Positions 1-28,598 of a DNA stretch of 33,700 nt are shown in pieces. How positions within the stretch are numbered: position 1 is the stretch's first letter; each line of letters opens with the position of its first letter. Under the pieces are notes generated by a model. It searched no databases. It had not been told where the DNA came from and worked only from the letters and a program-made list of their open reading frames with translations. This stretch comes from an uncultured Verrucomicrobiales bacterium (lineage in GTDB: Bacteria > Verrucomicrobiota > Verrucomicrobiia > Limisphaerales > JAYPXF01): positions 1 to 33,700 of the forward strand of contig CALBIE010000620.1 of NCBI GenBank assembly GCA_937893495.1, written 5' to 3'. A program made the translations under genes and the position numbers.

Positions 1-9
1 CGGGACGGG

Positions 10-237
10 ATGCAACACTATTTACAGCCCAAGGTTTTTGTTTCGGGCGGTATAACATACAAATGGGAGATTTCTGCCAAGCACTCTAAATTGCCCGAAT
101 TTCGCATTGATTCGCCCACGATGCATACTGTCATCATTAATCCTTGGGATTGGTTTGATTTGGTTTTTGAACTTTGGGAGAGCCGCCCTGAACTTCTCGA
201 TAAACTAAGTGAATACCCAATTGGTTCAATTTACTGA
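10..237 (+). CDS. Hypothetical protein of the first, partly visible gene cassette
   Basis: This is an open frame of 75 codons with plausible coding character: mixed hydrophobic and charged residues and a Trp-rich middle (NPWDWFDLVFELW). I do not recognise a family. The frame stays open to the left edge of the window (three codons before the ATG), so the gene may start further upstream. It lies upstream of an attC-like site on the same strand as the other cassette genes, which is the usual orientation. About 130 bases separate its stop from the attC. A competing minus-strand frame (391 to 137) overlaps its 3' half, so the assignment is uncertain. Confidence 0.4.
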   Translation: MQHYLQPKVFVSGGITYKWEISAKHSKLPEFRIDSPTMHTVIINPWDWFDLVFELWESRPELLDKLSEYPIGSIY

Positions 238-368
238 TTAGTAGTTCCGCTGCGTCCTCATATAGCTTACCTCCTTCATCGTTGTATTGAGCCATTGGCC
301 ACTGAAACTGAATATGATTAGCAACACACTCCCCATCATCATGCCCATCGTGAATCGCGGAACAAACA

Positions 369-497
369 AGCGAGAACAAGGCGGTGGACATCAACGACTG
401 ACCCGCTGCGTGTTCGGAATCGCCGCCATCGTTCGGGACTTCGGCTTGCTGCGAAGCCCCGCCCTCGGTCAGCCGTGAGTCACCTTTGACGTTCGCT
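369..497 (+). other. attC-like cassette recombination site 1
   Basis: The site starts with a slightly degenerate inverse core (AGCGAGAAC at 369-377) and ends with the core GTTCGCT at 491-497. Inside, the arm around 385-402 pairs imperfectly with the arm around 460-484, with a few unpaired bases on one side only, as attC sites typically show. The segment just before the 3' core (cctttgac) is shared with attC site 2. Confidence 0.6.
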
Positions 498-503
498 GAA
501 GAA

Positions 504-974
504 ATGAGCCCCAAATCGGAAAGCATCCATCAGCGAGGGCAATCGTTCCTTCCTTGGATGATCCGGAAGATTGCTCCCGCTCTATTCGTCGTCGGAATCG
601 TTGGATGCGTAATCGGTCTGCTTGCAACTCACAATACTCCACTGCTTCGGGTGCTGTCGATTGTGGCGGCAGTTCTGTTCGCGCTTTGTTCGATTCTCTA
701 TTTCTACTGGGCGGGTTGCCAAACCAACGGAGGAGGATACAGGTGGTCAGGTTTGGAGCGAATTGGCATTGCCGTTTCAGGTCTAGCGGCTCTTGTGATG
801 GCCGCCAAGTTGGCGCTTCCTGACGCACTTCCTGGATCGCATGTCGTGTATCTCGTCACCGCAATGATTCTGGCCTTTGTGGTGCGCCCTATTTTTGACA
901 GCTTGGGCTTCAACAAAAACAACAGCGAACAAGGCGGTGCTGGACAACCGGCTACTCGCTCCGAGTCGAAATGA
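504..974 (+). CDS. Cassette-borne small integral membrane protein
   Basis: The product is a 156-residue protein with four predicted membrane segments, at about residues 16-40, 44-68, 80-100 and 107-127, and a polar Ser/Gly/Asn-rich tail. The start is the ATG at 504, seven bases after attC site 1, rather than the in-frame TTG at 486 inside the attC. The purine stretch GAAGAA just upstream could serve as a weak ribosome site. The last 15 or so codons run into attC site 2, which is common in cassettes. I do not recognise a family; a four-helix inner-membrane protein of unknown role is all the sequence supports. It is the only gene of its cassette (about 492-1044). Confidence 0.65.
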   Translation: MSPKSESIHQRGQSFLPWMIRKIAPALFVVGIVGCVIGLLATHNTPLLRVLSIVAAVLFALCSILYFYWAGCQTNGGGYRWSGLERIGIAVSGLAALVMAAKLALPDALPGSHVVYLVTAMILAFVVRPIFDSLGFNKNNSEQGGAGQPATRSESK

Positions 975-1050
975 TTTCCGCAGCTACAAACCTTAACCCG
1001 CAGTCGAAGGCGCGCCGCCGGTAGCCGGTGCCAGACCTTTGACGTTAGCC
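924..1050 (+). other. attC-like cassette recombination site 2
   Basis: The inverse core AGCGAAC (924-930) and the core GTTAGCC (1044-1050) frame a 127-base imperfect palindrome. CTGGACAACCGGCTAC on the left pairs with GTAGCCGGTGCCAG on the right, leaving two extra unpaired bases on the left arm, the hallmark that gives attC sites their strand polarity. The inverse core matches the start of the cassette it closes (TTCGCT), as expected for a cassette that once circularised. Confidence 0.75.
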
Positions 1051-1115
1051 GTCATGGGAGCATCCCGTGAGAATTTGCATCTAAGAAATAACCGATTCCC
1101 GTGTCTCTATACTGT

Positions 1116-1598
1116 ATGAAACGAATTCTCTTTCTCACATTCTTATCGCTGGCTGTGTCGCTGGTCGCCGCAGAAAAACCGTATGACTTCCGGGCCGCGG
1201 ACGCCTATCGCAAACTCCCCGGCGCCGACAAGCAACGGCTAGAACAGGTTCACCGTGATCTGGTTTTGTTGTGGGGCGCACTGGATATTTATGCTGATGA
1301 GCACAGCGGAAACCCGCCTGCAACTCTTGACGACCTTGTCCCCAAGTATCTGGCGGAACTTCCATCTGATCCCTTTGCGACTCAGGACACAGCAAGTGCC
1401 CAGACAACTCACGGCTACACGCAATCCAAGAAAGGCATGGGATACCGATTCAAGCAAGGTGCTCCGGGGAATCGTGCGTGGGTCATTGCGAGCATTGGGC
1501 TGGCGGATTTTCCGTATCTTGCAGAACGGGGGAATGTTGGTCTTTACGTCTGCAAGGGGACTTGGATTTCCGGCATCAATCCGGTGATCACCAAATGA
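1116..1598 (+). CDS. Cassette-borne secreted protein with a GspG-like C-terminal region
   Basis: The product is a 160-residue protein beginning with a classical signal peptide (MKRILFLTFLSLAVSLVAA) followed by AEKPYDF. The ATG at 1116 is preferred to the upstream GTG at 1101 because it starts the signal peptide directly. Residues about 50-130 contain a helix (LLWGALDIYADEHSG), then PPATLDDLVPKYL and LPSDPFA, and near the end WVIASIGLADF. This order resembles the soluble domain of type II secretion major pseudopilins (GspG-like), but the pseudopilin N-terminal methylation helix is absent. The resemblance is by eye only, and the function is unknown. It is the only gene in its cassette (about 1045-1719). 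Confidence 0.65.
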   Translation: MKRILFLTFLSLAVSLVAAEKPYDFRAADAYRKLPGADKQRLEQVHRDLVLLWGALDIYADEHSGNPPATLDDLVPKYLAELPSDPFATQDTASAQTTHGYTQSKKGMGYRFKQGAPGNRAWVIASIGLADFPYLAERGNVGLYVCKGTWISGINPVITK

Positions 1599-1599
1599 C

Positions 1600-1725
1600 G
1601 GCTAACCAGATCACTGCACCGAACTGCCGCCCCGCCTTGCAGCTTCGATGCGCCGGATTCTTCGGAAGCTGCATTCGCTGGCAGCGCCCGTTTCCGGCGG
1701 CAGTCGGTGAGTTCAAGCGTTAGGC
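1600..1725 (+). other. attC-like cassette recombination site 3
   Basis: This is the clearest site. The inverse core GGCTAAC (1600-1606) and core GTTAGGC (1719-1725) flank arms in which ACTGCACCGAACTGCCGCC (left) pairs with GGCGGCAGTCGGTGAGT (right), with two unpaired bases on the left arm. A second inner hairpin (GCAGCTTCG / CGGAAGCTGC) extends the fold. The inverse core is the complement of the start of the cassette it closes (TTAGCC). Confidence 0.8.
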
Positions 1726-1738
1726 GGCTCGCACCGTT

Positions 1739-1981
1739 ATGGATTTTCCGGAGCTTCGAGATGGTCAGCACGCGGTCGTAGCAGCCGAGGTTCAGACTGG
1801 TATCGTTTTGAGTCTCGACGGCAAACGATGGCGGAAGGATGAGCCAGCGGAGTGTTGGCGGGTCTTTGACTCGTTCGCAGCGGCTCGCGAGTTTGCAGTT
1901 GCAGAGGTCGCGAAGAATCCATTGGTTGAGTTTTGCATTTACGACAGAAAAGACCATCCAGTTGAGAGGATTGTGAGGTGA
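1739..1981 (+). CDS. Cassette-borne small hypothetical protein
   Basis: The frame encodes 80 residues and starts 14 bases after attC site 3, the usual tight spacing of cassette genes. The product is soluble, with a beta-rich first half (HAVVAAEVQTGIVLSLDGK), a Trp-containing middle and a helix (SFAAAREFAVAEVAK), then LVEFCIYDRKDH at the C-terminus. I do not recognise the family. No signal peptide or membrane segment is visible. It occupies nearly all of its cassette (about 1720-2073). Confidence 0.6.
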   Translation: MDFPELRDGQHAVVAAEVQTGIVLSLDGKRWRKDEPAECWRVFDSFAAAREFAVAEVAKNPLVEFCIYDRKDHPVERIVR

Positions 1982-1991
1982 CAATGACGCC

Positions 1992-2079
1992 GCCTAACGA
2001 ATGAAGCATAGCTTTGATTCGGAGCGCAGCGGAGACATCAAAACTATGCCTGGGTGAACTGGCCCGGCGAACGTTCAGT
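1992..2079 (+). other. Probable, atypical attC site 4
   Basis: The inverse core GCCTAAC (1992-1998) complements the start of the cassette it closes (TTAGGC), so this end is credible. Inside, AAGCATAGCTTTGAT pairs with ATCAAAACTATGCCT. The 3' core is GTTCAGT (2073-2079), which departs from the GTTRRRY consensus at one position, and the outer arms pair poorly. The site is shorter (88 bases) than the other three. Confidence 0.45.
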
Positions 2080-2242: not shown

Positions 2243-2266
2243 AGGGGTCAGTCCTAAAGGTTGACA
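2243..2266 (+). repeat. Left terminal inverted repeat of the transposase element
   Basis: The 24-bp sequence is the exact reverse complement of 3255-3278. It contains GGTCAGTCC and GGTTGAC. Confidence 0.85.
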
Positions 2267-2296
2267 GTTTTTCTTGTTCACGCTTACCCTGCACCC

Positions 2297-3229
2297 ATGC
2301 CACGCAAGTTGCGAGTTGAGTATCCGGGCGCGATTTACCATGTGATGAACCGGGGGGATCGCCGCGAACCCATCTTCAAGGACGACGCGGATCGGAAACG
2401 GTTTCTGGAAACCCTCGGCGAAGCGTGCGCCAAGACCGGCTGGCAGGTTCACGCCCTCTGCCTGATGCCCAATCACTTCCATCTCGTCGTGGAAACCCCC
2501 GGCGGCAATCTGGTGGCCGGCATGAAGTGGTTCCTCGGCACTTACACCGCGCGTTTCAACCGGTGCCACAAGCTCTTCGGCCACCTCTTCAGCGGGCGTT
2601 ACAAGGCCCTCATCGTGGACGGCAGCGGCAACGGCTACCTGAAGACCGTCTGCGATTACGTGCACCTGAACCCGGCCCGCGCGAATCTGGTTCGTCCCCG
2701 GCAGGCGCTTTCCGCGTATTTGTGGAGCAGTTGGCCGGAATACATGAAACCACCCTCCAGGCGTTGGCCGTGGCTCCGGTTGGATCGGTTGTTGGGCGAG
2801 CATTTGATTCCGAAAGACAGCGCGGCCGGGCGGCGGCGATTGGAGGAGGCGCTGGAGCAAAGGCGGCTGGGCGCCGAGGGCGACGCCTTCAAGGCCATCC
2901 GGCGCGGCTGGTATTTCGGGGGCAATTCGTTGAAGGAGGAACTGCTCGAGCAGATAGGGCAGCGCGCCAGCGAGCACCATTACGCGGAGGAACGCCGTGA
3001 AAGCGGCGAGTCGCAGGCGCGCGGAATCGTGGCGGAGGAACTCAAGCGGTTGCGCTGGACCGATGCGGACCTGCGGGAGCGTCGCAAAGGAGATCCGAAG
3101 AAGGTGCGAATCGCCCGGCGTCTGCGCGGGGAGACGACGATGACGCTCAAGTGGGTGGCGAGGGAGCTGCACATGGGCGCTTGGACGAACGTGTCCAATC
3201 TGCTCTCGGCCGCGAAGCGAAAGTCGTGA
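2297..3229 (+). CDS. REP-associated tyrosine transposase (Y1/HUH superfamily)
   Basis: The product has 310 residues and starts at MPRKLRVEYPGA, the usual beginning of this family; the in-frame upstream codons from 2261 are not typical. The HUH metal-binding motif is present as MPNHFHLVVE (His60 and His62). It is followed by GHLFSGRYKALIV and YVHLNPARANLV, family-typical blocks that carry the candidate catalytic tyrosine. The C-terminal part (about 255-310) is basic and looks like a small helix-turn-helix (TLKWVARELHMG). Proteins of this family nick single-stranded DNA at short palindromes and are thought to spread REP sequences. Several palindromic repeats in this window are possible substrates, although no direct match to this element's ends was found. 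Confidence 0.9.
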   Translation: MPRKLRVEYPGAIYHVMNRGDRREPIFKDDADRKRFLETLGEACAKTGWQVHALCLMPNHFHLVVETPGGNLVAGMKWFLGTYTARFNRCHKLFGHLFSGRYKALIVDGSGNGYLKTVCDYVHLNPARANLVRPRQALSAYLWSSWPEYMKPPSRRWPWLRLDRLLGEHLIPKDSAAGRRRLEEALEQRRLGAEGDAFKAIRRGWYFGGNSLKEELLEQIGQRASEHHYAEERRESGESQARGIVAEELKRLRWTDADLRERRKGDPKKVRIARRLRGETTMTLKWVARELHMGAWTNVSNLLSAAKRKS

Positions 3230-3254
3230 GGAACACTCACCCGCCGACCATTTG

Positions 3255-3278
3255 TGTCAACCTTTAGGACTGACCCCT
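3255..3278 (-). repeat. Right terminal inverted repeat of the transposase element
   Basis: This is the exact reverse complement of 2243-2266. It encodes the last six residues (GVSPKG) and the stop codon of the minus-strand phosphatase gene. Confidence 0.85.
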
Positions 3279-10505: not shown

Positions 10506-10748
10506 GGATAGGTAACGCCGATTTTAACCACCAGCAGAACCGGAGGAAAGAAAATGCTGTTGCATACCGGCAAAAATCGCCCCAGTAATCCGGTTCCTTC
10601 ATTTAACGTGCGCGCCGAACACCGGACTGGTTTGCGGGCCACGCACGATCTTCGCAATGGACGGCATCCCGAGCACCCGAAAGAAACTTCCGGGTCATAC
10701 ACCTGATTGCTCGATATCCCGACGAAGTTCCCTCACATTTGGAGCGTC

Positions 10749-12353
10749 ATGGCATCAAGAATTGTTATTCGGGCTTTGGTCATTCCCTGGGTATTTGGGT
10801 GTCTCGTCATTGGTCATTCCGCCGCCGCCCGGCTCCCCAACATCATCATCATCTATGCCGACGATCTCGGTTACGGCGATCTGTCATCCTACAATCCCAA
10901 CGCGGCCTACAAGACGCCGCGCCTCGACCGCATGGCGGCGGAAGGGATTCGCTTCACCGACGCCCACAGTCCATCGACCATCTGCTCCCCCTCGCGTTAC
11001 GGACTCTTTTCGGGGAACCAGGTCTGCCGCACGGGTCGCGGAACCCGGGCCTTCGAGGGTCCGGGCGGTCCAAGCTACATCAAGCCGGGCGAACTCACCA
11101 TCGGAGAGATGTTGCGCTCTCAGGGTTATCGGACCGGCGTCTTCGGCAAATGGCATGTCGGACTGACGTGGTATGACAAGAACGGCAAACAACTGGGTGG
11201 CGGGTTCAAGAACTCGTTGCTCATCGACTACCAACGCAGCACGCCACTGGAGGACGGCCCGAACCAACGCGGGTTTGATGAATCCTTTGTCACACCCAAC
11301 TGTCCGACCACCGATCCGCTCTACGTTTACATCGAGAACGGCATGGTAAAGACCCCGGCCAGCCAACGCCACAAACGTGGCAACCTGCCCAATCCCGGCG
11401 GAAAATGGCGCTGGGATAATGACGAAGGCTGGATGGCACCGGACTACAGATTCGTTGACGCGGATCTCCTCTTCTACGACAAGACCCTGGACTTCATCAC
11501 CAGGCACCGGAAGAATCACTCCGACAAACCCTTCTTCGCCGTCTTCTCCACGCAGATTTCCCACGCCCCGGTCCTTCCCGCGCCCGAGTTCAACGGGAAG
11601 ACCAAGGGCGGCCCTCGGGGTGATTTCGTGTTCGAACTCGACACGCTCACCGGCCGCCTGCTCGACGCGATCAAACGCATGGGAATCGATGATGATACTC
11701 TCGTTCTCTTCACCTCCGACAACGGACCCGAAACCGTCCACACAGACTGGATGCGCCAGGATCACCATCACGATGCCGCCGGTGGCTACCGCGGCATGAA
11801 GCGGGACGGTTGGGAAGGCGGCCATCGCGTTCCGTTCATTGCCCGCTGGCCCGGCCGGATACCTCCCGGGCAGGTGTCCGAACAATTGATCAACACCACC
11901 GACATCTTCGCCACCCTCGCTTCAGTGACTGGCCATGGACTTCCCGATGACGCCGCGGTGGACAGCTTCGACCTGCTTCCCGCGATGCTCGGAACGGCGA
12001 AGAAACCCATTCGTCCTCACATGCTTACGCAAAGCTTTCGCGGCGAATTCCAGCTTCGCCAGGGCGATTGGAAATACCTCAACCACATGGGCTCCGGTGG
12101 AAACAACTACACGCGCGGCAATCTCCTGAAATACGCCCTACCCGAAACCGCACCCGACGCGACCGGCCAACTCTTCAATCTCGCCAAAGATCCCGCTGAA
12201 ACCACGAACCTTTTCTTTAGCGAATCCGGCAAGCGCAAAGAATTACAGGCACTGTTAAAGAAGCTGACCAGCAAAGACGGCGGCCGCACGGCTCCGGTAA
12301 ACCGGAAACCGATCGGAATTGGGAATATCCCCCGCTTGTCTTCGGTGCGGTAG
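10749..12353 (+). CDS. Secreted formylglycine-dependent sulfatase
   Basis: The 534-residue family S1 (arylsulfatase-type) sulfatase has an N-terminal signal peptide ending near SAAARLP. The ATG at 10749 starts the signal peptide and has GGAG four bases upstream. Metal-binding Asp residues are in IIIIYADDLGYGD. The catalytic Cys79 lies in TICSPSRYGLFSG, the CxPSR signature modified to formylglycine. Other landmarks are FGKWHVG and FTSDNGPE with a later HRVPFIARWPG. It would remove sulfate esters from glycans in the periplasm or outside. The exact substrate is unknown. It is followed by a sialidase-like gene and a second sulfatase. Confidence 0.93.
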   Translation: MASRIVIRALVIPWVFGCLVIGHSAAARLPNIIIIYADDLGYGDLSSYNPNAAYKTPRLDRMAAEGIRFTDAHSPSTICSPSRYGLFSGNQVCRTGRGTRAFEGPGGPSYIKPGELTIGEMLRSQGYRTGVFGKWHVGLTWYDKNGKQLGGGFKNSLLIDYQRSTPLEDGPNQRGFDESFVTPNCPTTDPLYVYIENGMVKTPASQRHKRGNLPNPGGKWRWDNDEGWMAPDYRFVDADLLFYDKTLDFITRHRKNHSDKPFFAVFSTQISHAPVLPAPEFNGKTKGGPRGDFVFELDTLTGRLLDAIKRMGIDDDTLVLFTSDNGPETVHTDWMRQDHHHDAAGGYRGMKRDGWEGGHRVPFIARWPGRIPPGQVSEQLINTTDIFATLASVTGHGLPDDAAVDSFDLLPAMLGTAKKPIRPHMLTQSFRGEFQLRQGDWKYLNHMGSGGNNYTRGNLLKYALPETAPDATGQLFNLAKDPAETTNLFFSESGKRKELQALLKKLTSKDGGRTAPVNRKPIGIGNIPRLSSVR

Positions 12354-12502
12354 GTCCGCCACTGGCGCCAGAAAATTAGCCGGACGTCACAAGGACAGCA
12401 TCGCTACGTCCGATGACAATAACCGCCCTGACAGTCAGTCCGCGTACACCGCCGCTTGCGGCCGGCGGGCGCGGCGCGGAGATCGGCAACGAAGCCGAGC
12501 TG

Positions 12503-12532
12503 TTGACACGGCCGGACTATTTCGTCTGTATT
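12503..12532 (+). promoter_or_regulatory. Possible promoter before the sialidase-like gene
   Basis: A perfect TTGACA (12503-12508) is followed 17-18 bases later by CTGTATT, a weak -10 match. Only about eight bases then remain to the ATG at 12540, so a transcript from here would be nearly leaderless. Confidence 0.25.
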
Positions 12533-12539
12533 TGGTGCC

Positions 12540-13775
12540 ATGCAAACGCCCCCCGTCGGTCTGCTCCGATTAATTCTTTTCGGATTCCTGATAGGCTCGA
12601 TGACCGGCTCCATCGCCGCAGCGGCGGGCCTGGTCATCCTGCTCGATCTGCCCGGTTCGGGAACTGATCCTGATCGCATTGATTACGCCAAGCTGCCGCG
12701 CCTCAAGGGCGATCACGCCGTAGTCAGCATCGCCACGCGAAATGATCGTCCGGAAGTGGACGGACGCGTTGACCTGCGCAACTTCCGCTTCGAACTTCAC
12801 AACTACCTCGCGCACTTCGGCGGACGTTTCTGGTGCATCTGGAGTGACGGCCCGGTGGTCGAGGACGAACCCACGCAGGAGATTCGCTACGCCACGAGCA
12901 AAGACGGTCTGCGCTGGTCGGATTCGAAATCCGTCACCGGCACGCCGGCTGCGCCGTATGCCTTCATCGCGCGCGGACTTTGGATTCGCAACGGCGAATT
13001 GCTCGCGCTGGGTGCGCATTACAAGGGCAAGGGCGCGTTTGGCGTGGACAAAGAACTGGAACTGCACGCCTGCGCGTGGGACGAAAAGAAGGGCGAATGG
13101 TCTTTCAAACAAAAGCTCTACGGCAACGCCATCAACAACTTCGCGCCGCAACGCCTCGCCTCCGGTGACTGGATCCTTACGCGCCGCGATTCGCGCTTCA
13201 ATGTATCGGTGCTCATCGGCGGGGTGAAATCGCTCGACGACTGGCAGTCGTTTCCCGTCGTCGGCATCGGCGAGGTGAAGGGGTTTCGACCGGACGAACC
13301 CATCTTCTGGCCGCTGCCCGACCAGACGCTATACGCGCTCTACCGCGACAACGGCGGATCGCGGCGGGTGTTTCACTCGACCTCAACCGATCAGGGCCGA
13401 ACCTGGGGCAAGCCGGTCATGTCCAATTTTCCGAACTCCACCAGCAAGCTGTTCTCGATGAAAACCAGTCGCGGTTATCGCGTGTTGGTGCTCAACGCCA
13501 ATCCCAATATCGGCCGGCGTGAACTGCATCTCGCGGTCAGCAAAGACGATCGGATCTTCACCCGCCTGGCGTGGCTGGACATCCCGGCCCCGCCGGAGAA
13601 TGAGGCCGTCAATACCGTTTCGTTGCGGAAGAAATTTTCCGCCGGCATCGGAACGCTTCAGTATCCGCACGTCATCGAACATGATGGATTTCTCTACATC
13701 GCCTTCTCGCGCCTCAAGCTGCAGACTGAAGTCCTGCGGGTGCCGCTGGATGCCATCGAAGCCTTGCTGAAATAG
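12540..13775 (+). CDS. Sialidase-like (BNR/Asp-box) secreted protein
   Basis: The 411-residue protein has a hydrophobic signal or anchor segment (about 8-36) and a predicted six-bladed beta-propeller. An Asp-box STDQGRTW is seen at about residue 282, and a second, weaker one (TSKDGLRWSD) near 119. Arg-containing strands such as QEIRYATS and LYALYRDNGGSRRVFHS resemble those of exo-alpha-sialidases. The catalytic set (Arg triad, Tyr/Glu pair) could not be confirmed by eye, so the substrate may be sialic acid or another sugar. Its stop is one base before the next sulfatase start, so the two are probably co-transcribed. Confidence 0.75.
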   Translation: MQTPPVGLLRLILFGFLIGSMTGSIAAAAGLVILLDLPGSGTDPDRIDYAKLPRLKGDHAVVSIATRNDRPEVDGRVDLRNFRFELHNYLAHFGGRFWCIWSDGPVVEDEPTQEIRYATSKDGLRWSDSKSVTGTPAAPYAFIARGLWIRNGELLALGAHYKGKGAFGVDKELELHACAWDEKKGEWSFKQKLYGNAINNFAPQRLASGDWILTRRDSRFNVSVLIGGVKSLDDWQSFPVVGIGEVKGFRPDEPIFWPLPDQTLYALYRDNGGSRRVFHSTSTDQGRTWGKPVMSNFPNSTSKLFSMKTSRGYRVLVLNANPNIGRRELHLAVSKDDRIFTRLAWLDIPAPPENEAVNTVSLRKKFSAGIGTLQYPHVIEHDGFLYIAFSRLKLQTEVLRVPLDAIEALLK

Positions 13776-13776
13776 T

Positions 13777-15132
13777 ATGGTGCGACCCCTGCTCACCTAC
13801 GGCCTCAGTCTCATCTGCGCCTGCGCAGTGAATGCGGAACGGCCGAACATTATTCTCATTCTCGCCGATGATCTCGGCTATGGCGACATCGGGTGTTTCG
13901 GGAACACCATCAACCGCACGCCACATCTCGATCAATTGGCGCGCGAGGGACTACGGTTGACGGATTTACATTCCAACGCCGCCAACTGTTCGCCGACCCG
14001 GGCCGCGCTGTTGACCGGTCGATATCAGCAACGGATGCGGATCGAAGGCGCGCTCGGCGAGAATGCGCCGGGTTTGCTCAAGAGTGAAATCACCATCGCC
14101 GAGCGGTTGCATGAAGCCGGATACGCCACCGCGCTCTTCGGCAAATGGCATCTTGGCTACAAATCGGCCAACGGCCCTTTGCTTCACGGCTTTGAGGAGT
14201 TCATCGGCCATCTCCACGGGGCCACCGATTACATTTCGCATGTGGACAAATACGGACGGATGGACTGGTGGCACGGCGATCAGCCGACAGTGGAGGCGGG
14301 GCACAACACGGAATTGATCACCCGGCATTCCGTCGGCTTTATCGAACGCTATCGCGACAAGCCGTTTTTCCTGTTCGTGTCGCATTCGGCAATCCACTTC
14401 CCCTGGATGAATCCGGGAGACGAGGCGCATCGAACAGCCGGAACACGGTATGAAGGCAAATTGGGAAAACTTGGCCCCCACGCAAACGGACCCCTGCAAC
14501 CGGTCGTGCAGCGGATGATCGAGGACCTGGACAAAAGCGTCGGCCGGATCGTGGCGACCGTCCGGCGATTGAAACTTGAGAAGCGGACACTCATTTTTTT
14601 CACATCGGACAATGGCGGGATCGTGAAGGAAGCGGGCGTGCCGATTGTTCCGTCGAACCGGATTTCCAGCAATGCGCCGTTGCGCGGTCAGAAGCATGGC
14701 CTTTACGAGGGCGGCCATCGGGTCCCGACCATCGCCTGGTGGCCCGGCAAAATTGAAAGAGGCGGCACTTCCGGAGAAACGACGATGACGATGGACCTGT
14801 TTCCGACCCTGCTCGAACTGGCGGGTTTGAATCAACCAGCACCCGACTCCGCCAGCCGACTTGATGGCATCAGCCTCGTCCCGTTGCTCACCTGCGGCAA
14901 GGCCCTGCCGCCGCGCAAATTGTTCTGGCGTCAGGGAGATTCGCGCGCGGCTCGATCCGGCAATTGGAAGATCGTCAGTATCCATCAGCAACCGTTTGAG
15001 CTTTACGATTTGGAACACGATCTCGCCGAACGGCGAAGCCTCGCGCAAGAACACCCGGACAAACTCCGCGAACTGATGGAGAAACATCAGGCCTGGGAAC
15101 GGGAGGTGACATCGGGTTCGCCGCGAGACTGA
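13777..15132 (+). CDS. Secreted formylglycine-dependent sulfatase
   Basis: The 451-residue family S1 sulfatase has a short signal peptide (LLTYGLSLICACAVNA). Metal site residues are in IILILADDLGYGD. Cys71 in NCSPTRAALLTG is the formylglycine precursor; Thr instead of Ser follows the Pro, a common variant. FGKWHLGY, FFTSDNGG and HRVPTIAWWPGK complete the fold. Its start lies one base after the sialidase-like stop, arguing for coordinated action on a sulfated, possibly sialylated glycan. The C-terminal domain ends in FELYDLEHDLAE, typical of the family. The sulfatase-maturing enzyme is not in the window. Confidence 0.92.
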   Translation: MVRPLLTYGLSLICACAVNAERPNIILILADDLGYGDIGCFGNTINRTPHLDQLAREGLRLTDLHSNAANCSPTRAALLTGRYQQRMRIEGALGENAPGLLKSEITIAERLHEAGYATALFGKWHLGYKSANGPLLHGFEEFIGHLHGATDYISHVDKYGRMDWWHGDQPTVEAGHNTELITRHSVGFIERYRDKPFFLFVSHSAIHFPWMNPGDEAHRTAGTRYEGKLGKLGPHANGPLQPVVQRMIEDLDKSVGRIVATVRRLKLEKRTLIFFTSDNGGIVKEAGVPIVPSNRISSNAPLRGQKHGLYEGGHRVPTIAWWPGKIERGGTSGETTMTMDLFPTLLELAGLNQPAPDSASRLDGISLVPLLTCGKALPPRKLFWRQGDSRAARSGNWKIVSIHQQPFELYDLEHDLAERRSLAQEHPDKLRELMEKHQAWEREVTSGSPRD

Positions 15133-20584: not shown

Positions 20585-21618
20585 TTCAGGCCAAGCATCA
20601 TACAGTTAAGACCGCTGCCAATTCCGAGGAAACTGACGTTGTCACCCGGTTTGAGAGCGCCGCGTTCCTTCGCCAGGGCGGCGGTGATGGGAAGGGAGAC
20701 GGTGCCGATGTTTCCAAGGTGTTCGTAGGTGGTGAAATCCTTCTCAGGCGCAATGCCAAGCGTCTTGAGAATGGAACTCTGATGCCCTGATCCAACCTGA
20801 TGGCAGATGACGCGATCGACGTCGTCATTCGCCCAGCTCATTTCGGCAAGGAACGACTGCCACGTTTCTTTCCCCAGTTCGACCCCATGCTTGAGTACCG
20901 CCACGGAATCGGTGGACATGAACGGGCGATGCACACCGTCAATCTTCTCAATCCCCCACCGGCAAAGTTCATGATGCTCGGGCGCGACGTGGGTGACGCC
21001 ACCCAGGAGTCGATGTCCGGATGCCTTGTCAAAGCTGCCGTCCGTCAACAGGACCGCCACGGCGCCGGAACCACCCGTCAGCGTGGCCAGTGCGAGCGTG
21101 AAGAGTTTCATGTCCTCCATCTGCAGCATCCGGTCGATCATGACGTCGTTGATCTCACGAGCGGATTCGCACGAGACGATCAGGCCGGCGCGAATCTGGC
21201 CAAGCTCGATGCGGTTGGCGACTTCGAGCATGCCGTTGAGCACGCCGAGGCAGGCGTTGCTGATGTCGTACACGGCGGTGGATCGCTTCACGCCAAGACC
21301 GGCGGCCACGCGACAGGCCGTGGCCGGTTCGTAAAGCTCGCGACAGACTCCAGCGTAAATCAGTGAACCAATCTCCTCGATGGGAACGCCGGAAGCGACG
21401 AGCGCTTTCTTCGCGGCCGACGTGGCTCCACGCGACACGGGCGTGCCGGGCGCCCACCAGCGGCGTTCCGCGATGCCGGTCAGGAATTCCAGTTGTCCTT
21501 CCGCGATGCGCAGCTTTTTCAGCATCGGCGCGAGGCGGGCTTCCAGTTCCTCGGACGTCACGACGACTGGCGCGAGTTCGTAGCCGATGCCGGTGAGTTC
21601 AACCTTCTCGTACTTCAT
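20578..21618 (-). CDS. oleA: OleA-like thiolase, head-to-head acyl condensing enzyme
   Basis: The 346-residue thiolase-fold protein is of the FabH/OleA type. The catalytic set is visible: Cys123 in SNACLGVLNG, His273 in ICHQVGSG and Asn303 in HLGNIGTVSLP. Glu97 in LYEPATAC lies exactly 26 residues before the Cys, and the His-Asn spacing is 30. Both match what I recall for Xanthomonas OleA (Glu117, Cys143, His285, Asn315); this Glu separates OleA from FabH. OleA joins two fatty acyl thioesters to a beta-keto acid. Its ATG shares one base with the stop of the synthase gene upstream, so it is translated in step with it. Confidence 0.94.
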   Translation of the reverse strand: MKYEKVELTGIGYELAPVVVTSEELEARLAPMLKKLRIAEGQLEFLTGIAERRWWAPGTPVSRGATSAAKKALVASGVPIEEIGSLIYAGVCRELYEPATACRVAAGLGVKRSTAVYDISNACLGVLNGMLEVANRIELGQIRAGLIVSCESAREINDVMIDRMLQMEDMKLFTLALATLTGGSGAVAVLLTDGSFDKASGHRLLGGVTHVAPEHHELCRWGIEKIDGVHRPFMSTDSVAVLKHGVELGKETWQSFLAEMSWANDDVDRVICHQVGSGHQSSILKTLGIAPEKDFTTYEHLGNIGTVSLPITAALAKERGALKPGDNVSFLGIGSGLNCMMLGLKW

Positions 21619-24600
21619 CAGGCGTCGCGATAGGCAGCAGTAAAGTCCTTCATCCCGTAAATGATCCGGCCATCGACCGATAGATATCCGTCGGCACGAA
21701 TCAGGCGATTTTCGATGTCAATGTCAGTGACGACGGCTTCGACCGTGACGAGATTGTCGGTGGGCAAAATCTGGCCGCGATAAACCCACTCATGCGGCTG
21801 GCCGACGGCCATGGCTTCCATCCGTCCGGATTCGCCGATTTCAAACTTCTCCGCCATGACCACCTTCAACAATTGTAGGAAGGATTCCAGCCCGAGCGAT
21901 CCCGGGCAGACCGGATCCTGAAAGAAGTGAGCCTTGAAGAACCATTCGTTGGGATTCACATCCTTCGTGCCCCTGATGTAACCCAACCCCTCGGGTCCGC
22001 CGTCGGGCACAAAGGTTTCGACCCGGTCGATCATCCGCATCCGGGTTCCGGGAAACAATCCAGTCTCCGGATACGAAAATTTTTTCGCGCGGCTCAATTC
22101 GTCCGTGGTCGGCCCGTAAAGTTTCGCCTCGCGAATGCCGACCTGTTGCGCCAATGCCTGCTTCGAGAAAAAACCAAAATACGTGTTGCCCTGGTAGGCG
22201 AGACCCCGGCGGGAATGGACCTCGTATTCGTAATGCTGAATGATCATCCCGCCGGAACTGGACGCCCGCGTAATGTGCACCTTGATGGAGAGTGTTCCGG
22301 CGTTGGGATAGATGGGAAAGAACTGTTCCGCCTTGCCGCCAAGATTGCGGAATGACAAATCAACGTCGCTTGTCAGCGCCGACCCGATGTAGCCGGCGAG
22401 CCAGCCGCAAGGTTGCAGGGCGATCTCCAGCAGCACGGCAAAGGGCATGTCGCCCTGCCGGTTCCCGGCGAAGTACCATTCGCCCGGCGGCACGTCGTAC
22501 TCGGCAACGATTTTGCCACCGGCCTGCATCTTCCATGGCTCGCAATCGATTTCGACGATGCGATCAAGAAACTTGTACGGCGGACCCGGCAGACGGGCGA
22601 TCACCCGCCCGCTGTCGAACACTTTGTAGGGCTCGCCGAATGCTGCGGATGGTTTGCCAATCGCGAAGGCCAGGATGCGATCGTTGTCGAAGCGCGGGGC
22701 CTGGGACGTGGGGCGAGGGGCGAGGGAGGCTGGCGCACTCGCTGTGGCACCATTGTTTTGCCAGAGCGCCTCGATACCTTCCCGGGTCCAGCCTTCGAAC
22801 CGGATGGACATGTCGTGCATCTCCACGATGGGACGGCCATCGGCATACATCAACGCGTCGGCAATGGCGTAGGGTTCCGGGCGATAGCCCATCTCCTTGA
22901 TGGAGATTTCATAAACGACCTTCTTCGTCGTCTCGATGACCTGGCCGCGACATTTCAGTTTGCCGGTCACGCCGGGAACGGGCCCGTGCGTCAGGTGGTC
23001 CGTTTCGCCGACCCAACCCATCCGCAGCAGCAGAATGCGAAGCGTGTGCAGACAGCATTCATACATCAAGGTGCCGGGCATGACCTTGTCATCGACGAAG
23101 TGACAGGTCAGAAACCAGTCGTCCGGATGAATGTCCGCCTCGGCGCGGATGATGCCCAACCCGAATCGCCCGCCCTGCGGTTTGATGGACGACACCCGGT
23201 CCACCAGTTTCATCCGGTCGCCCGGCAACGTCAGTGGATTCGCGAGATTCAATCCACGGAAACGTTCGCCAAAGCAGGCGGCGAGATCGCCATCGCGCAA
23301 GGCGTCCAGCCGTTCATCAGAAATGGATTCGTCGGTGAGCGGAACCAGTTCGCGCCAATCGGCCGGCAAGATTCCGGGGACGGGACGCAGATCGAGCTGC
23401 GTGTGAACGATGCCCTTGCCGGCGGCAAGTTCCGCTTCGGTGAAAAAACCGGCGCAGCCATTGCGCATGCTCAGCAACGGCTCGCCATCGACGGTGCCGT
23501 CAAACCGGAAACGAAACAGCCACGTGGAACCCTGCCGGAAGAAGCCGTCGATGTGGATGTCGTAATCGATGATCGAACCGGGTCCCGGTAACGAACGGTG
23601 AAAGGTGATTTCCGCATCCAACAGGCGATAGACCGCGAGGCCCTTGGTTTGAAAATCGATACCGAGGTAACCGGACAGAAACAAGTCCGCCTGGCCTGCT
23701 TCAACGGCGATGCACGTGGGTATCTTCCCGCCATCGAGATACCATGCGCCGGAGTGAATGTCGTGTTCCGTCACCAGACTGCCGTGCGTCATCGAACGCG
23801 GTTCGCCCGAGATGGACATGATTCGATCCACCAGCATCAACGGTTCGTCCGGCAGTCGCACCCGCGTGGGATGGTTGTCGATTTCAGCAAACCCCTCGCC
23901 CAGCACGTTGCCCAATTTGCCGATGGCGATTTCAAAACAGGCTTCGCGGTCGAACGCCACCGATCGTCTATCGGAGTCCTTTGTCGTCGGTCGAAAATTT
24001 GTTTGCGGCAGCCGCAGAGAAACGCTGGAACCCGCCGGGCGTTGCGCCAGCAACTCCAACTGATCCTTCACCGCCAGCGTCATGGCGTGTTGCAGGTTCT
24101 CTGAGAATTTCAGGAACTGCTCGTGCGCGAGCGTGCGCGCCCGGGTGGTGCGCACGAGTTGTTCCAAAAAGGGATCACCCGTCCCCGGGGCTGATACAAA
24201 GGCGGGCGTCAACGTGGAGGGCGGCGCATATTCCATTCTCGTCGTGAGGGTCCCAACTTGTTCGTCGGGTTCCGGTTCCGCGATGAGATAGTCCGGCTCC
24301 GGATCGAAGAGGGCGACGTCCGGTTCATTGCAATCGGGAAGGGAGACGTCGAAAGATTTTCCGCCAAGCGGCACCGAAACCATCGGGACGGTGCGATGAT
24401 GCGCAGGAGAACGATTCGCCGGGGGTTCGGCCGCGTAAAGGAAATCGAGGTTCATCGAAAACTGATGACCAATCAATTTGGCGAAGAACCGGAGCAGCGT
24501 GATGGTTTCGCCCTGCCCGGGAAAGCACGCTGAAATCGCCAGATGCGGCCGGTCACCGAGAATCTTCGGAATCATCCGGCTGCAACTCGCGCCGGGTCCC

Positions 24601-27600
24601 ATTTCGAGAAAGGTGCGAATGCCGTCGTCGTAGGCGGCGTTGATGACCTTGGGATAATTCACCCCGTCCAGCGCCTGCGCGAGGATGGACGCGGCGGCGG
24701 TCTCGCGGCTGACATCGTAGGATTTGCCCCACGCGCCGCTGTAGTAACGCACCCCCGCCGGCGGGTCCGTCGGAAACAGATGCAGATCGTGGTATTCCTT
24801 TTCGACCGGCTTGGCCACATCGCAATGCACGGTGGTGACGCCGTCAATCGGATACCAGTGGCACTTCAATCGCCGGACCACTTCATTTACGCCTTTGGCG
24901 TCACCGCCGATCACGCATTCCTCGGGTGTGTTGACGATCAGCAGGTAAACCTTTGAATAGTGACTCAACAGTTCGCCGACCTTCTCCGATGAACACGCGA
25001 CCACGCCAAGTTTCCAGTCAATCGGTTCCGACTCGGGAATTCCCCAGACCTTGCGGGCGGCCTTGCAAGGGCCGGCGAGGTCCGTGCTGAAAAGTGTGCC
25101 GGCTTTCATGCGTCGATACATCTCGTCACGATCCTTCCAGGCCCGGGTGGAAAACAATCCGGCGGATTCGCCGAGGCTGTAACCGACAACCGCATTCGGA
25201 TGAATGCCGCTTTGCTCGACGATATCCGTGACCATCGCGCCCAGGGCGACCTGGCCATAGATCATTGCGTGATGATCCTGATTGATCGCCTTGAGCGTTT
25301 GTTCGCTCCAGAACATCTGCGGCACCATCTGACCGGCGAGGTTGCCGTTTTCGCCGTCGAGCCGACGAATGACCTGCGGAAACTGCAGCGCCAGTTCCCT
25401 CCCCATGTCAGGATAGTGATTGCCGGAACCGGGATAGACAAAGCCGAGGCCATAATCGGGCAGGATGGAATGGGGATTGAAGAACACCCCCGCCTGCTCC
25501 AACTCCTGGATGGCGGGCGCCGAATCCGGTTCCGAACAAATGGCGGTGATCCGACCTCGGCAAAGATCCACCTGCGCGGACAATTGCGGGACGAACTGGG
25601 AAACGATTCCCAACTGCTTGCCGACATTGGTGGAGTGGTTGTGCGAACGATGCCATTGCCGCGCAAGCGATTCGATGCCGGTTCCCACAAACTCACCGGC
25701 CCCCTCAGCGAGTTCGTCCAGTTGCGCCTCGATGCTCTCCGCATTTTCCCCGGCGACGACAAACAGTGCCGCGGGACTGTCGCCGAGCGGCCGGGATTTC
25801 TCCAACTGCACGGTCGGATCGGACTGGTTTTCGTACGCCTGCAAAACCACGTGGGTGCAATTACCATCGACACTGAAGGAACTGACCCCGGCGAATCTCC
25901 GTTCAACCTTGCGGTCGCGCAGCCAGTACTGGGCCTTCGGCGAGCACGCGAGCTGGCCCGTGGATTCGAAGTGCGACCGGACGCGTTCGTGGCCGGGAAT
26001 GCCGGGAATGATTTCCTGAAACAGACTCAGCGAGGCCTTGGCAATGGAAGCCAGCCCCGACGCGGCACCGGTGTGGCCAATGCTGCCCATGCAACTGCTG
26101 ACGCGAATCGGCCGGTCAAGATGATCGCGATTGAAAAATCGGTTGAGCGCGCCCGCCTCGACCTTGTCCTCGTGCTCGTTGCCGCTGCCATGGGCCTCAA
26201 CGTAACCCACCGCGGCAGGCTCCACGTCGGCTTCGGCATACGCCCGCGCCAGGGCATCGAGATAAGTCTGTTCGCGCGGATAAACGGATTCACTTTCCCC
26301 GCCGATGGCGCTGCCGATTCCCTCGATGACACTGTAAATGCGATCCCCGTCGGCGATGGCATCCTCCACCCGTTTCAAAATCAGCGCAACCGCGCCTTCA
26401 CCGGGAATCGTGCCATCGGAATCCTGGCTGAACGGAACGTGATTCCCGGATTTGGAATAGGGCCGGCTCCCGTGCGTGCCCAGCACAGAGCGAATCTCAC
26501 CGGCCAGATCCACCGCCCCTACGAGAACATGATCGACCTCCTTGTTCTGCAAGGCGCGAACGCCGGCCTCCAACGCGCGGATGCCCGAAGCCTCCTCGCT
26601 CTGCACGGTGTGCGCCGGTCCGCCGATGCGGAACTCGCGGGCAATCCGGCTGGCGACGATGCCGCCAAGCGCGCCCATGGTGCGATTGGCGTTCAACGCC
26701 GGACCCGCGACATCGCGCAATTGATCGACCCAGTCCTCGAGATCCTCCTCGCCCAAATCCAGTTCCAATTCGCGATTCCATTGGCGGGCCTTTTCGAGCA
26801 GCGACCAGCGGAAGTGAAAATGCGTGGTGCCCAGATCGAGCCCGACCCCGATGAAAACGGCGGAGCGATGCGGTTCACGCGTATCCGATTGCAGATCGTC
26901 CAGCGCCCCACCGGCGACTTTCAGCATCAGCAACTGCTGCGGCAGCATCTCCTCCAGTTCCTTCGGCGGAATGCGAAATTGATTGATGGGAACCTTCAGG
27001 TCCGACAGGTAATACCCGGCGAACGGACAGTCTCCCGCCGCGGAGTTTTTGAACCACTTCGACTGCTGAAGGTTCCACCAGTTGGCATTGGGTTCCGGCT
27101 TCTCATCGCGCCGGCCAAACACGCGCTCCTGAAAAGCGGCCAGGCTGTCCCATTTGCCGAAGGCCGCGTCCATCGCGACAATCGCCACCTTCCCCGCTGG
27201 ATCGGGCGACGCAACGGTCGGTTTGGAAATTGATTTAGGCGACCTCTCCTTGCGCCATTCTTCGACCAGCAAATGGGCGTTGATGCCGCCGAATCCAAAT
27301 GCGCTGACGGCCGCCCGGCGAGGCGCATTGGCGGAGCGCCGGCGCCATTCGCGGGAGCGCGTCAGGATGGAAAACGGGCTGTTTTCCAAATCGATTCGTC
27401 CACCGGCCTTGGAAAAGTTCGCAATAGGCGGCAACGTGGCGTGCTTCATCGCGAGCAACGTCTTGATCAGTCCCGCACCGCCCGCTCCCGTCAACAGATG
27501 GCCGACGTTGGACTTGGCGGCCCCCAACAAACACTGGCCCGGCTTCCACTCCGTGTCGCTCCAGAGTTCCTTCAAGCTTTTGAATTCCACGGCGTCTCCG

Positions 27601-28598
27601 ACGGGCGTGCCGGTGGCATGGCACTCGATCAGATCCACCTGGTTCGGGTTCCAGCCCGCGTTCTCGTACGCCGAACGCATGGCGCGCACCTGTCCTTCGC
27701 TGCTCGGCGCGAGGATGTTGCCCTCGACATCGTTGGACAGGCCGATTCCGCGGATCGTTCCATAAATTTGATCGCCGTCGCGCAACGCATCGGACAACCG
27801 TTTCATCACCACGATGCCGGAGCCTTCACCGACGATCAATCCGTCGGCCCGTTCATCGAAGGGCGTGCATCGGCCGGACCGCGACAGCGCATGCAACTGA
27901 GAAAATCCCATCTGCGTGTAAAGACAGTCGGGTCGTGAGAGGCCGCCGCTGAGCATGACATCCGCCCGGCCACTCAAAAGTTCATCGGAGGCCAACTTGA
28001 TCGCGTAGAGCGACGAAGCGCAGGCCGCGTCAAGCGTGTAGCTTCCGTAACCAAGCCCCAGCGCGCGCGCCAACAGGCCGGCGGGAAGACCGGTGACGTA
28101 GCGGTTCAACGGTTGACCGCCGGTCTTCGCCGGTCGCTTGCGGCGTCCGAGAAGCTGTTCCTCGAATTCCGCGCCGAAGATTTCTTCACCCAGCGCGGAC
28201 GCGCCAGTGGTGGGCAGCGCGATGTTGCCGATGATGATTCCCGTGCGCTGCCGATTGATGGCCTCGTGGCTGTGGGTGTCGAGCCAGGCCTGGCGGCCGG
28301 CGTAGAGGAGGAGCCGGCAAACCTCATCCAGTCCGGCGACAAATTCGCGCGAGATTTCCAGACCATCCAGATCGAGCGCGTAATCCTGAATGAAGCAACC
28401 CCGATCCGTATAGACCTTGTCCGGCAGAATGCCCGACGTGTCCACGACGTCTTCCGGCGCGAGTGCCCAACGCCCCGCAGGCACGACCGACGAGGTGTCC
28501 GTTCCCTGCTCGATGATCTCCCAGAAACGATTCAGGTCCGCCGCCCCGGGAAACACTCCGCCCAGGCCGACGATGGCGATGGGTTCGGTGTTCCTCAT
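21618..28598 (-). CDS. pfaC: PfaC-like PUFA-type synthase: KS-CLF-AT-(hot-dog)x4
   Basis: The product has 2,326 residues from the ATG at 28598 (MRNTEPIAIVGLGGVFPGA), which overlaps the previous stop as ATGA; the longer frame from 28664 only adds upstream coding sequence. Domains: ketosynthase (about 5-455) with Cys193, His327 and His367; chain-length factor (about 470-925) in which Glu669 stands at the Cys position; acyltransferase (about 1050-1440) with Ser1141 in GYSLGESAG; and four FabA-like hot-dog units starting near 1580, 1795, 2005 and 2185. Units two and four carry catalytic His motifs (CHFVDDKVMPG, HFFQDPVCPG) and one and three do not. This fits two double-hot-dog dehydratases that isomerise and dehydrate. 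The AT sits between CLF and dehydratases, unlike the separate PfaB of Shewanella, and resembles myxobacterial Pfa3 (from memory). No acyltransferase of the AGPAT type or enoyl reductase is attached. Confidence 0.92.
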   Translation of the reverse strand: MRNTEPIAIVGLGGVFPGAADLNRFWEIIEQGTDTSSVVPAGRWALAPEDVVDTSGILPDKVYTDRGCFIQDYALDLDGLEISREFVAGLDEVCRLLLYAGRQAWLDTHSHEAINRQRTGIIIGNIALPTTGASALGEEIFGAEFEEQLLGRRKRPAKTGGQPLNRYVTGLPAGLLARALGLGYGSYTLDAACASSLYAIKLASDELLSGRADVMLSGGLSRPDCLYTQMGFSQLHALSRSGRCTPFDERADGLIVGEGSGIVVMKRLSDALRDGDQIYGTIRGIGLSNDVEGNILAPSSEGQVRAMRSAYENAGWNPNQVDLIECHATGTPVGDAVEFKSLKELWSDTEWKPGQCLLGAAKSNVGHLLTGAGGAGLIKTLLAMKHATLPPIANFSKAGGRIDLENSPFSILTRSREWRRRSANAPRRAAVSAFGFGGINAHLLVEEWRKERSPKSISKPTVASPDPAGKVAIVAMDAAFGKWDSLAAFQERVFGRRDEKPEPNANWWNLQQSKWFKNSAAGDCPFAGYYLSDLKVPINQFRIPPKELEEMLPQQLLMLKVAGGALDDLQSDTREPHRSAVFIGVGLDLGTTHFHFRWSLLEKARQWNRELELDLGEEDLEDWVDQLRDVAGPALNANRTMGALGGIVASRIAREFRIGGPAHTVQSEEASGIRALEAGVRALQNKEVDHVLVGAVDLAGEIRSVLGTHGSRPYSKSGNHVPFSQDSDGTIPGEGAVALILKRVEDAIADGDRIYSVIEGIGSAIGGESESVYPREQTYLDALARAYAEADVEPAAVGYVEAHGSGNEHEDKVEAGALNRFFNRDHLDRPIRVSSCMGSIGHTGAASGLASIAKASLSLFQEIIPGIPGHERVRSHFESTGQLACSPKAQYWLRDRKVERRFAGVSSFSVDGNCTHVVLQAYENQSDPTVQLEKSRPLGDSPAALFVVAGENAESIEAQLDELAEGAGEFVGTGIESLARQWHRSHNHSTNVGKQLGIVSQFVPQLSAQVDLCRGRITAICSEPDSAPAIQELEQAGVFFNPHSILPDYGLGFVYPGSGNHYPDMGRELALQFPQVIRRLDGENGNLAGQMVPQMFWSEQTLKAINQDHHAMIYGQVALGAMVTDIVEQSGIHPNAVVGYSLGESAGLFSTRAWKDRDEMYRRMKAGTLFSTDLAGPCKAARKVWGIPESEPIDWKLGVVACSSEKVGELLSHYSKVYLLIVNTPEECVIGGDAKGVNEVVRRLKCHWYPIDGVTTVHCDVAKPVEKEYHDLHLFPTDPPAGVRYYSGAWGKSYDVSRETAAASILAQALDGVNYPKVINAAYDDGIRTFLEMGPGASCSRMIPKILGDRPHLAISACFPGQGETITLLRFFAKLIGHQFSMNLDFLYAAEPPANRSPAHHRTVPMVSVPLGGKSFDVSLPDCNEPDVALFDPEPDYLIAEPEPDEQVGTLTTRMEYAPPSTLTPAFVSAPGTGDPFLEQLVRTTRARTLAHEQFLKFSENLQHAMTLAVKDQLELLAQRPAGSSVSLRLPQTNFRPTTKDSDRRSVAFDREACFEIAIGKLGNVLGEGFAEIDNHPTRVRLPDEPLMLVDRIMSISGEPRSMTHGSLVTEHDIHSGAWYLDGGKIPTCIAVEAGQADLFLSGYLGIDFQTKGLAVYRLLDAEITFHRSLPGPGSIIDYDIHIDGFFRQGSTWLFRFRFDGTVDGEPLLSMRNGCAGFFTEAELAAGKGIVHTQLDLRPVPGILPADWRELVPLTDESISDERLDALRDGDLAACFGERFRGLNLANPLTLPGDRMKLVDRVSSIKPQGGRFGLGIIRAEADIHPDDWFLTCHFVDDKVMPGTLMYECCLHTLRILLLRMGWVGETDHLTHGPVPGVTGKLKCRGQVIETTKKVVYEISIKEMGYRPEPYAIADALMYADGRPIVEMHDMSIRFEGWTREGIEALWQNNGATASAPASLAPRPTSQAPRFDNDRILAFAIGKPSAAFGEPYKVFDSGRVIARLPGPPYKFLDRIVEIDCEPWKMQAGGKIVAEYDVPPGEWYFAGNRQGDMPFAVLLEIALQPCGWLAGYIGSALTSDVDLSFRNLGGKAEQFFPIYPNAGTLSIKVHITRASSSGGMIIQHYEYEVHSRRGLAYQGNTYFGFFSKQALAQQVGIREAKLYGPTTDELSRAKKFSYPETGLFPGTRMRMIDRVETFVPDGGPEGLGYIRGTKDVNPNEWFFKAHFFQDPVCPGSLGLESFLQLLKVVMAEKFEIGESGRMEAMAVGQPHEWVYRGQILPTDNLVTVEAVVTDIDIENRLIRADGYLSVDGRIIYGMKDFTAAYRDA

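What the first reader, a model, noticed from the sequence alone, without database searches (positions are those of the whole stretch)
369..2079. Integron-type gene cassette array without a visible integrase
Seen: three good and one atypical attC-like sites, each closing a cassette with one short gene. The inverse core of each site matches the start of its own cassette (TTCGCT/AGCGAAC, TTAGCC/GGCTAAC, TTAGGC/GCCTAAC), the signature of circularised cassettes, and asymmetric unpaired bases occur in the arms. Chromosomal arrays in this kind of organism are little studied and the cassette proteins are unknown.
Basis: partly seen in the sequence, partly recalled or inferred. Interest (0 to 1): 0.65.

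Follow-up and report, generated by a model that had tools for sequence, protein, structure and literature searches.

The report
Real integron gene cassettes, integrase elsewhere
The stretch is a genuine integron cassette array (small swappable genes, each ending in a folded recombination site) at the broken edge of a contig from a verrucomicrobial genome; the integrase only looked absent because it lies on another contig of the same genome, so this is a known kind of system in a little-studied group.

Summary
Confirmed. Three attC sites close three cassettes at 369-497, 924-1050 and 1600-1725. A covariance model trained only on attC sites beside integron integrases in other genomes (mostly Verrucomicrobiota) finds exactly these three (44.8, 41.9 and 30.7 bits; E 8e-10 to 4e-6). 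The next best hit in 33.7 kb scores 12 bits. The fourth site keeps a correct R'' box (GCCTAAC, 1992-1998) but fails the model; it looks like a decayed array end. Each R'' of cassettes 2-4 is the exact complement of the core that opens its own cassette. Across 49 neighbouring cassettes of this genome and relatives the match is perfect in 32, against 4.8 expected by shuffling. The missing integrase is an assembly effect: the window is a whole contig that starts inside a cassette. The same genome encodes a clear IntI on contig C787 (TIGR02249, 360 bits, cut-off 265), which ends inside its first cassette. The genome holds at least 22 attC on 17 contigs; 12 of those have one within 1.1 kb of a contig end (3.7 expected). 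Integrons are already reported from Verrucomicrobiota (PMC8618304). New member of a known kind. Of minor interest: many dispersed arrays and an extra N-terminal domain on this IntI.

The parts
1..491 (+). cassette 1, cut by the contig edge; carries the end of an ORF (1-237, unknown protein) and attC-1
   Evidence: window begins at base 1 of contig C620; no Pfam or NCBIfam match
369..497 (+). attC-1 (R'' interrupted: AGCGagAAC; R' GTTCGCT)
   Evidence: R1 30.7 bits, E 4.2e-6; R2 59.5 bits
492..1044 (+). cassette 2: one ORF 504-974, 156 aa, hydrophobic (membrane-like), unknown
   Evidence: only weak sub-cut-off Pfam match to DUF6962; no homologue in 195 other genomes of the order or in plasmids
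924..1050 (+). attC-2 (R'' AGCGAAC, R' GTTAGCC)
   Evidence: R1 41.9 bits, E 4.9e-9
1045..1719 (+). cassette 3: one ORF 1116-1598, 160 aa, signal-peptide-like N-terminus, unknown
   Evidence: homologues at 62% (G111) and 65-71% (G142) identity in two genomes of the order, not beside attC; DNA homology with G111 covers 1080-1598 and stops 1 nt before R''
1600..1725 (+). attC-3 (R'' GGCTAAC, R' GTTAGGC)
   Evidence: R1 44.8 bits, E 8.3e-10
1720..2073 (+). cassette 4: one ORF 1739-1981, 80 aa, unknown; right boundary uncertain
   Evidence: no Pfam or NCBIfam match; one weak homologue (43% identity, E 1.5e-6) in 195 other genomes of the order
1992..2079 (+). attC-4, degenerate: intact R'' GCCTAAC and stem, extra nucleotides before GTTCAGT; probable distal end of the array
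   Evidence: R'' matches the start of cassette 4; not recognised by the model
2243..3278 (+). first element downstream of the array: REP-associated-type Y1 transposase gene (2297-3229) between perfect 24-bp inverted repeats; not part of the integron
   Evidence: PF01797 8.5e-14; NF047646 below its cut-off; inverted repeat

Best explanation
This is the distal part of an integron gene cassette array in a verrucomicrobial chromosome, cut by the contig edge. Each cassette is one small, apparently promoterless gene plus its own attC site. The integron integrase (IntI, encoded on contig C787 of the same genome) is inferred to bind the folded bottom strand of each attC, recombine at the R' core (G/TT), and excise or insert cassettes as circles, shuffling accessory genes. 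Shown by sequence: the attC architecture, its covariation, the core matching between the ends of one cassette, and an intact IntI of the right family in the genome. Inferred: that this IntI acts on these sites, and that the array is or was continuous with the intI contig rather than one of several detached arrays served in trans.
For: Independent covariance model: three hits, exact coordinates, nothing else in the window. Training sites lie beside IntI genes in other genomes. No hits at E<=0.01 in five other genomes of the order, about 25 Mb (first-look candidates capped at 150 per genome). Core matching 32/49 perfect against 4.8 by shuffling. Covariation across 22 attC of this genome: 84% of cells paired, 92 double changes against 31 shuffled (that alignment is model-fitted). 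In the original sequence alignment of the 8 training sites: 76.5% against 63.6%, 0/500 shuffles. IntI on C787: TIGR02249 360 bits, cut-off 265; 4e-63 to the solved integron integrase IntI4, 2A3V, aligned through the integron-specific insert WEWQWFWPS, catalytic R/H/Y motifs intact. Array contigs break at attC: 12/17 within 1.1 kb of an end, 3.7 expected. Cassettes carry less G+C (44-54%) than the flank (59%).
Against: No intI or attI is physically linked to this array. Folding energy of the isolated strands is not exceptional. Site 4 fails the model. The genome is a fragmented, MAG-like assembly (88% complete, 6.7% contamination), so co-binning of C787 and C620 is not proof that they share a cell. 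No recombination was observed.
Confidence: 0.96

Rival explanations
1. A true CALIN: a cluster of attC lacking any neighbouring integrase, made by off-target insertion of cassettes or by loss of intI, lying away from the C787 integron. (This is a sub-question of the best explanation: the array is an integron array either way.)
For: attC also occur mid-contig without intI in this genome (C467, C333, C483, C882). Relative G007 (98% complete) has 69 attC hits and no full intI, only near-identical N-terminal intI remnants, one of them beside a large array.
Against: The array runs off the contig edge on exactly the side where intI would lie; draft assemblies are known to inflate CALIN counts by splitting integrons (PMC9024848).
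Confidence: 0.5
2. Chance inverted repeats between ordinary small genes, not attC.
For: Hairpin energies are within the shuffled range; a loose box-and-arm scan finds many palindromes in the window.
Against: Independent covariance model, exact core matching of three consecutive cassettes, and homologous sites beside IntI genes.
Confidence: 0.01
3. The array belongs to a contaminating genome in the bin, not to the genome that owns the rest of the assembly.
For: Estimated contamination 6.7%.
Against: The contig continues for 31 kb of ordinary genes; attC of the same type are on 16 further contigs of the bin and in most other genomes of the order that were drawn.
Confidence: 0.05

Closest known systems
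Sedentary chromosomal integrons (Vibrio, Xanthomonas and others)
   Same: Chromosomal flanks, attC of similar type within a genome, cassettes of unknown function with one gene each, a single full-length IntI in the genome
   Different: Instead of one large array, attC are spread over at least 17 contigs; linkage of this array to intI not shown
[quoted passage not shown] IntegronFinder class)
   Same: Three attC within 4 kb of each other and no integrase on the contig
   Different: The label here depends on a contig break; an IntI exists in the same genome
V. cholerae integron integrase IntI4 (PDB 2A3V) and TIGR02249 integron integrases
   Same: C787 IntI aligns over the whole 320-residue enzyme with catalytic residues and the integron-specific insert
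   Different: About 100 extra N-terminal residues forming a predicted four-helix domain, present in related Verrucomicrobiota IntI and absent from the four gammaproteobacterial MAG IntI in that alignment and from 2A3V

Membership tests
attC site | R'' (RYYYAAC) and R' (GTTRRRY) boxes in inverted order | tested here: met
   Site 3 fits fully (GGCTAAC/GTTAGGC). AAC and GTT are intact in all three; sites 1-2 depart from the consensus outside them (R'' AGCGAAC, R' GTTCGCT) but keep complementarity within the cassette
attC site | Unpaired central spacer between R and L stems | tested here: met
   Modelled as unpaired columns, found in all hits
attC site | Extrahelical bases on the R''-L'' arm (PMC2727003) | tested here: met
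   Extra bases about 6 nt apart on the left arm only, e.g. site 3 and L008 sites
attC site | Strand-selective, IntI-dependent recombination of the bottom strand | not testable with these tools
   needs a conjugation or deletion assay
Integron cassette array | Tandem cassettes, one gene plus one attC each, same orientation; R'' matches the core at the start of its own cassette | tested here: met
   Cassettes 2-4, exact matches; ORFs
Complete integron | intI gene adjacent to the array | tested here: inconclusive
   IntI in the genome, but on another contig; both contigs end inside cassettes
Complete integron | attI site and cassette promoter | not tested
   Only one intI-cassette junction is available in this genome, so attI cannot be delimited
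Integron integrase (IntI) | Over the curated score of TIGR02249, with the integron-specific additional domain | tested here: met
   360 bits against 265; alignment to 2A3V through WEWQWFWPS
CALIN | At least two attC with no integrase nearby on an intact replicon | tested here: inconclusive
   Contig edge at base 1
Mobile (class 1-5) integron | Linked transposon or plasmid genes, heterogeneous attC, resistance genes | tested here: not met
   Flank carries SpoIIE/GAF phosphatase, Mla transporter, sulfatase and PKS-like genes; the only transposase-type gene seen is the Y1 element at 2243-3278; no resistance-gene match among cassette proteins in Pfam or NCBIfam

The most novel reading that the evidence does not exclude
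In this verrucomicrobial order the integron is a dispersed system: a single full-length IntI with an added N-terminal core-binding-like domain serves many small attC arrays scattered over the chromosome in trans, and the extra domain has to do with that different target use.
Probability: 0.15. Interest if true: 0.55.

Novelty: new member of a known kind. Interest (0 to 1): 0.27.

Why it matters
It adds a well-tested case of chromosomal integrons in a phylum that is barely covered: none of the 11 taxon-specific attC models of PMC8352920 is for Verrucomicrobiota. It shows that 34 of 97 genomes (this one and relatives) carry integron integrase matches and that 30 of 40 carry this attC type. The covariance model makes the cassette pool of the group searchable. 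It also shows how 'integrase-less' arrays arise from contig breaks. The cassette-3 gene, found elsewhere in the order without attC and with homology ending one base before R'', is a concrete case for studying how a chromosomal gene becomes a cassette.

Tried and rejected
A home-made box-and-arm scan was not specific and was replaced by a covariance model. Rfam has no gathering-threshold hit in the window. Plain MAFFT alignments of all 16 seed sites were misregistered; eight that aligned well were used. k-mer overlap between C620, C787 and C467 gave no join at contig ends (only interior repeats shared by C620 and C467). Conserved synteny of intI with the neighbouring sdhC-like gene: no homologue in the other intI loci. 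Array insertion point in relatives through the flanking SpoIIE gene: no match at 1e-60 in 11 other genomes. Truncated intI ORFs in G007 and G017 were considered as functional 'mini-integrases' and rejected: they are N-terminal remnants or internally deleted, and the G007 copies run into the same unrelated tail.

Full report
WHAT WAS CLAIMED.

THE SEQUENCE. The window is contig C620 of a genome of 7.98 Mb in 900 contigs, in full: base 1 is a contig end. Reading rightwards there is a truncated cassette 1 (ORF 1-237), attC-1 (369-497), cassette 2 (492-1044, ORF 504-974), attC-2 (924-1050), cassette 3 (1045-1719, ORF 1116-1598), attC-3 (1600-1725), cassette 4 (from 1720, ORF 1739-1981) and a degenerate attC-4 (1992-2079). 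Each R'' of cassettes 2-4 is the exact reverse complement of the core that opens its own cassette: AGCGAAC/GTTCGCT, GGCTAAC/GTTAGCC, GCCTAAC/GTTAGGC. Beyond the array come a Y1 transposase gene between 24-bp perfect inverted repeats and ordinary chromosomal genes.

INDEPENDENT TEST OF THE SITES. IntI relatives were collected from genome contigs. Their cassette sides carry sites of the same form. Eight of these, all beside an integrase gene and none from this genome, were aligned and made into covariance model R1. On the seed alignment 76.5% of cells pair against 63.6% shuffled, 0/500. R1 finds window 1600-1725 (44.8 bits), 924-1050 (41.9) and 369-497 (30.7), and then nothing above 12.2 bits. 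A broader model R2, which includes the window's sites and so is not independent for them, separates them further (71.6, 66.6 and 59.5 bits against 14.5 for the next). R2 gives no hit at E<=0.01 in five other genomes of the order, about 25 Mb in all; that search scores at most 150 first-look candidates per genome. AttC-4 is not recognised (5.2 bits): its R'' and stem are there, but about 16 extra nucleotides lie before the next GTT. I read it as a decayed distal end (inference).

CORE MATCHING AS A RECORD OF CASSETTE EXCHANGE. Over 49 neighbouring cassette pairs in this and related genomes, R'' equals the complement of the preceding core in 32, against a mean of 4.8 and a maximum of 12 in 2000 shuffles. 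Even a mutated core (GATAGGC/GCCTATC on contig C804) is mirrored. This is what excision and insertion of circular cassettes leaves behind.

WHERE THE INTEGRASE IS. The same genome encodes one protein over the curated cut-off for integron integrases: C787:3451-4383:-, 360 bits against 265. Its last 310 residues align with the solved integron integrase IntI4 (2A3V, 4e-63; also the best structural match of the predicted model, E 2.8e-23), including the integron-specific insert and the catalytic arginines, histidines and tyrosine. Its contig ends inside the first downstream cassette. At least 22 attC lie on 17 contigs (a lower bound, as only 150 of 4116 candidates were scored). Twelve of these contigs have attC within 1.1 kb of an end where 3.7 are expected from their lengths. 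PMC9024848 describes this splitting of integrons in draft genomes. Five contigs (C333, C467, C483, C882, C349) have attC further in without an intI hit, so some detached arrays are probably real; whether this one is cannot be settled.

CASSETTE CONTENTS. No cassette protein matches a Pfam or NCBIfam family over its cut-off. The cassette-3 protein has relatives at 62% (G111) and 65-71% (G142) identity in two genomes of the order, neither beside an attC. DNA similarity to the G111 copy runs from 1080, 36 nt before the start codon, to 1598, one base before R''. Cassette 2 has no relative in 195 other genomes of the order and cassette 4 one weak one.

RELATIVES. 34 of 97 genomes carry an integron integrase match at 1e-40 (31 with a match over the cut-off), and 30 of 40 carry attC of this type. 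G007 has 69 attC hits and no full intI, only near-identical N-terminal intI remnants, one of them divergently beside a large array. Verrucomicrobiota are already listed among phyla with integrons (PMC8618304), and CALINs are known to outnumber complete integrons in bacteria (PMC9668308).

AN EXTRA DOMAIN ON THIS INTEGRASE. The C787 IntI has about 100 residues before the usual enzyme. They are recognisable in IntI of ten other loci (mostly Verrucomicrobiota MAGs) and missing from four gammaproteobacterial ones. The model predicts four helices, mostly at pLDDT 80-92. Their best folds in the PDB are Cre and IntI4, TM 0.55-0.59 but E only 0.5-1.5. One of eleven sequences matches the Pfam SAM-like integrase domain at 4e-5, and a profile comparison with the enzyme's own core-binding domain gives P 3e-4 against 0.57 for a control domain. 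A duplicated core-binding domain is suggested, not shown.

VERDICT. The observation and interpretation hold. The missing integrase is explained by the contig edge and by the intI found on another contig. New member of a known kind; interest modest.

Noticed in passing
L001 (G000:C787) 2497-2796, minus strand: N-terminal extension of about 100 aa on the IntI, conserved in related Verrucomicrobiota IntI, predicted four-helix bundle resembling a second core-binding domain.
   Followed up: partly
G007:C220:38490-38711, G007:C69:1670-1891, G007:C56:34478-34699: Three near-identical truncated intI 5' ends in one genome that has 69 attC hits and no full intI; suggests duplicated array heads after integrase loss.
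   Followed up: partly
window 2243-3278: Y1 (REP-associated-type) transposase gene between perfect 24-bp inverted repeats AGGGGTCAGTCCTAAAGGTTGACA; such terminal repeats are not usual for single-copy RAYT genes (own knowledge).
   Followed up: no
window 1080-1598: Cassette-3 gene exists without attC in G111 and G142; in G111 similarity stops one base before R'' and includes 36 nt upstream of the start codon.
   Followed up: partly
L176 (G000:C804) 191-316 and 638-732: Matched non-canonical cores GATAGGC/GCCTATC in one cassette, lacking the usual GTT.
   Followed up: no
L001 (G000:C787), just upstream of the intI start, about 2803-2825: Perfect palindrome-like AAAGACAAACTCAGTTTGTCTTT in the intI leader, a possible operator.
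   Followed up: no
window 21618-33673, minus strand: Two very large genes with ketoacyl synthase, acyltransferase, three FabA-like domains, three carrier domains and KR: looks like a PUFA-synthase or PKS-type cluster.
   Followed up: no
window 10707-15132: Two sulfatases flanking a BNR-repeat (sialidase-like) protein, as often seen in polysaccharide-degrading Verrucomicrobiota (the generality is own knowledge).
   Followed up: no
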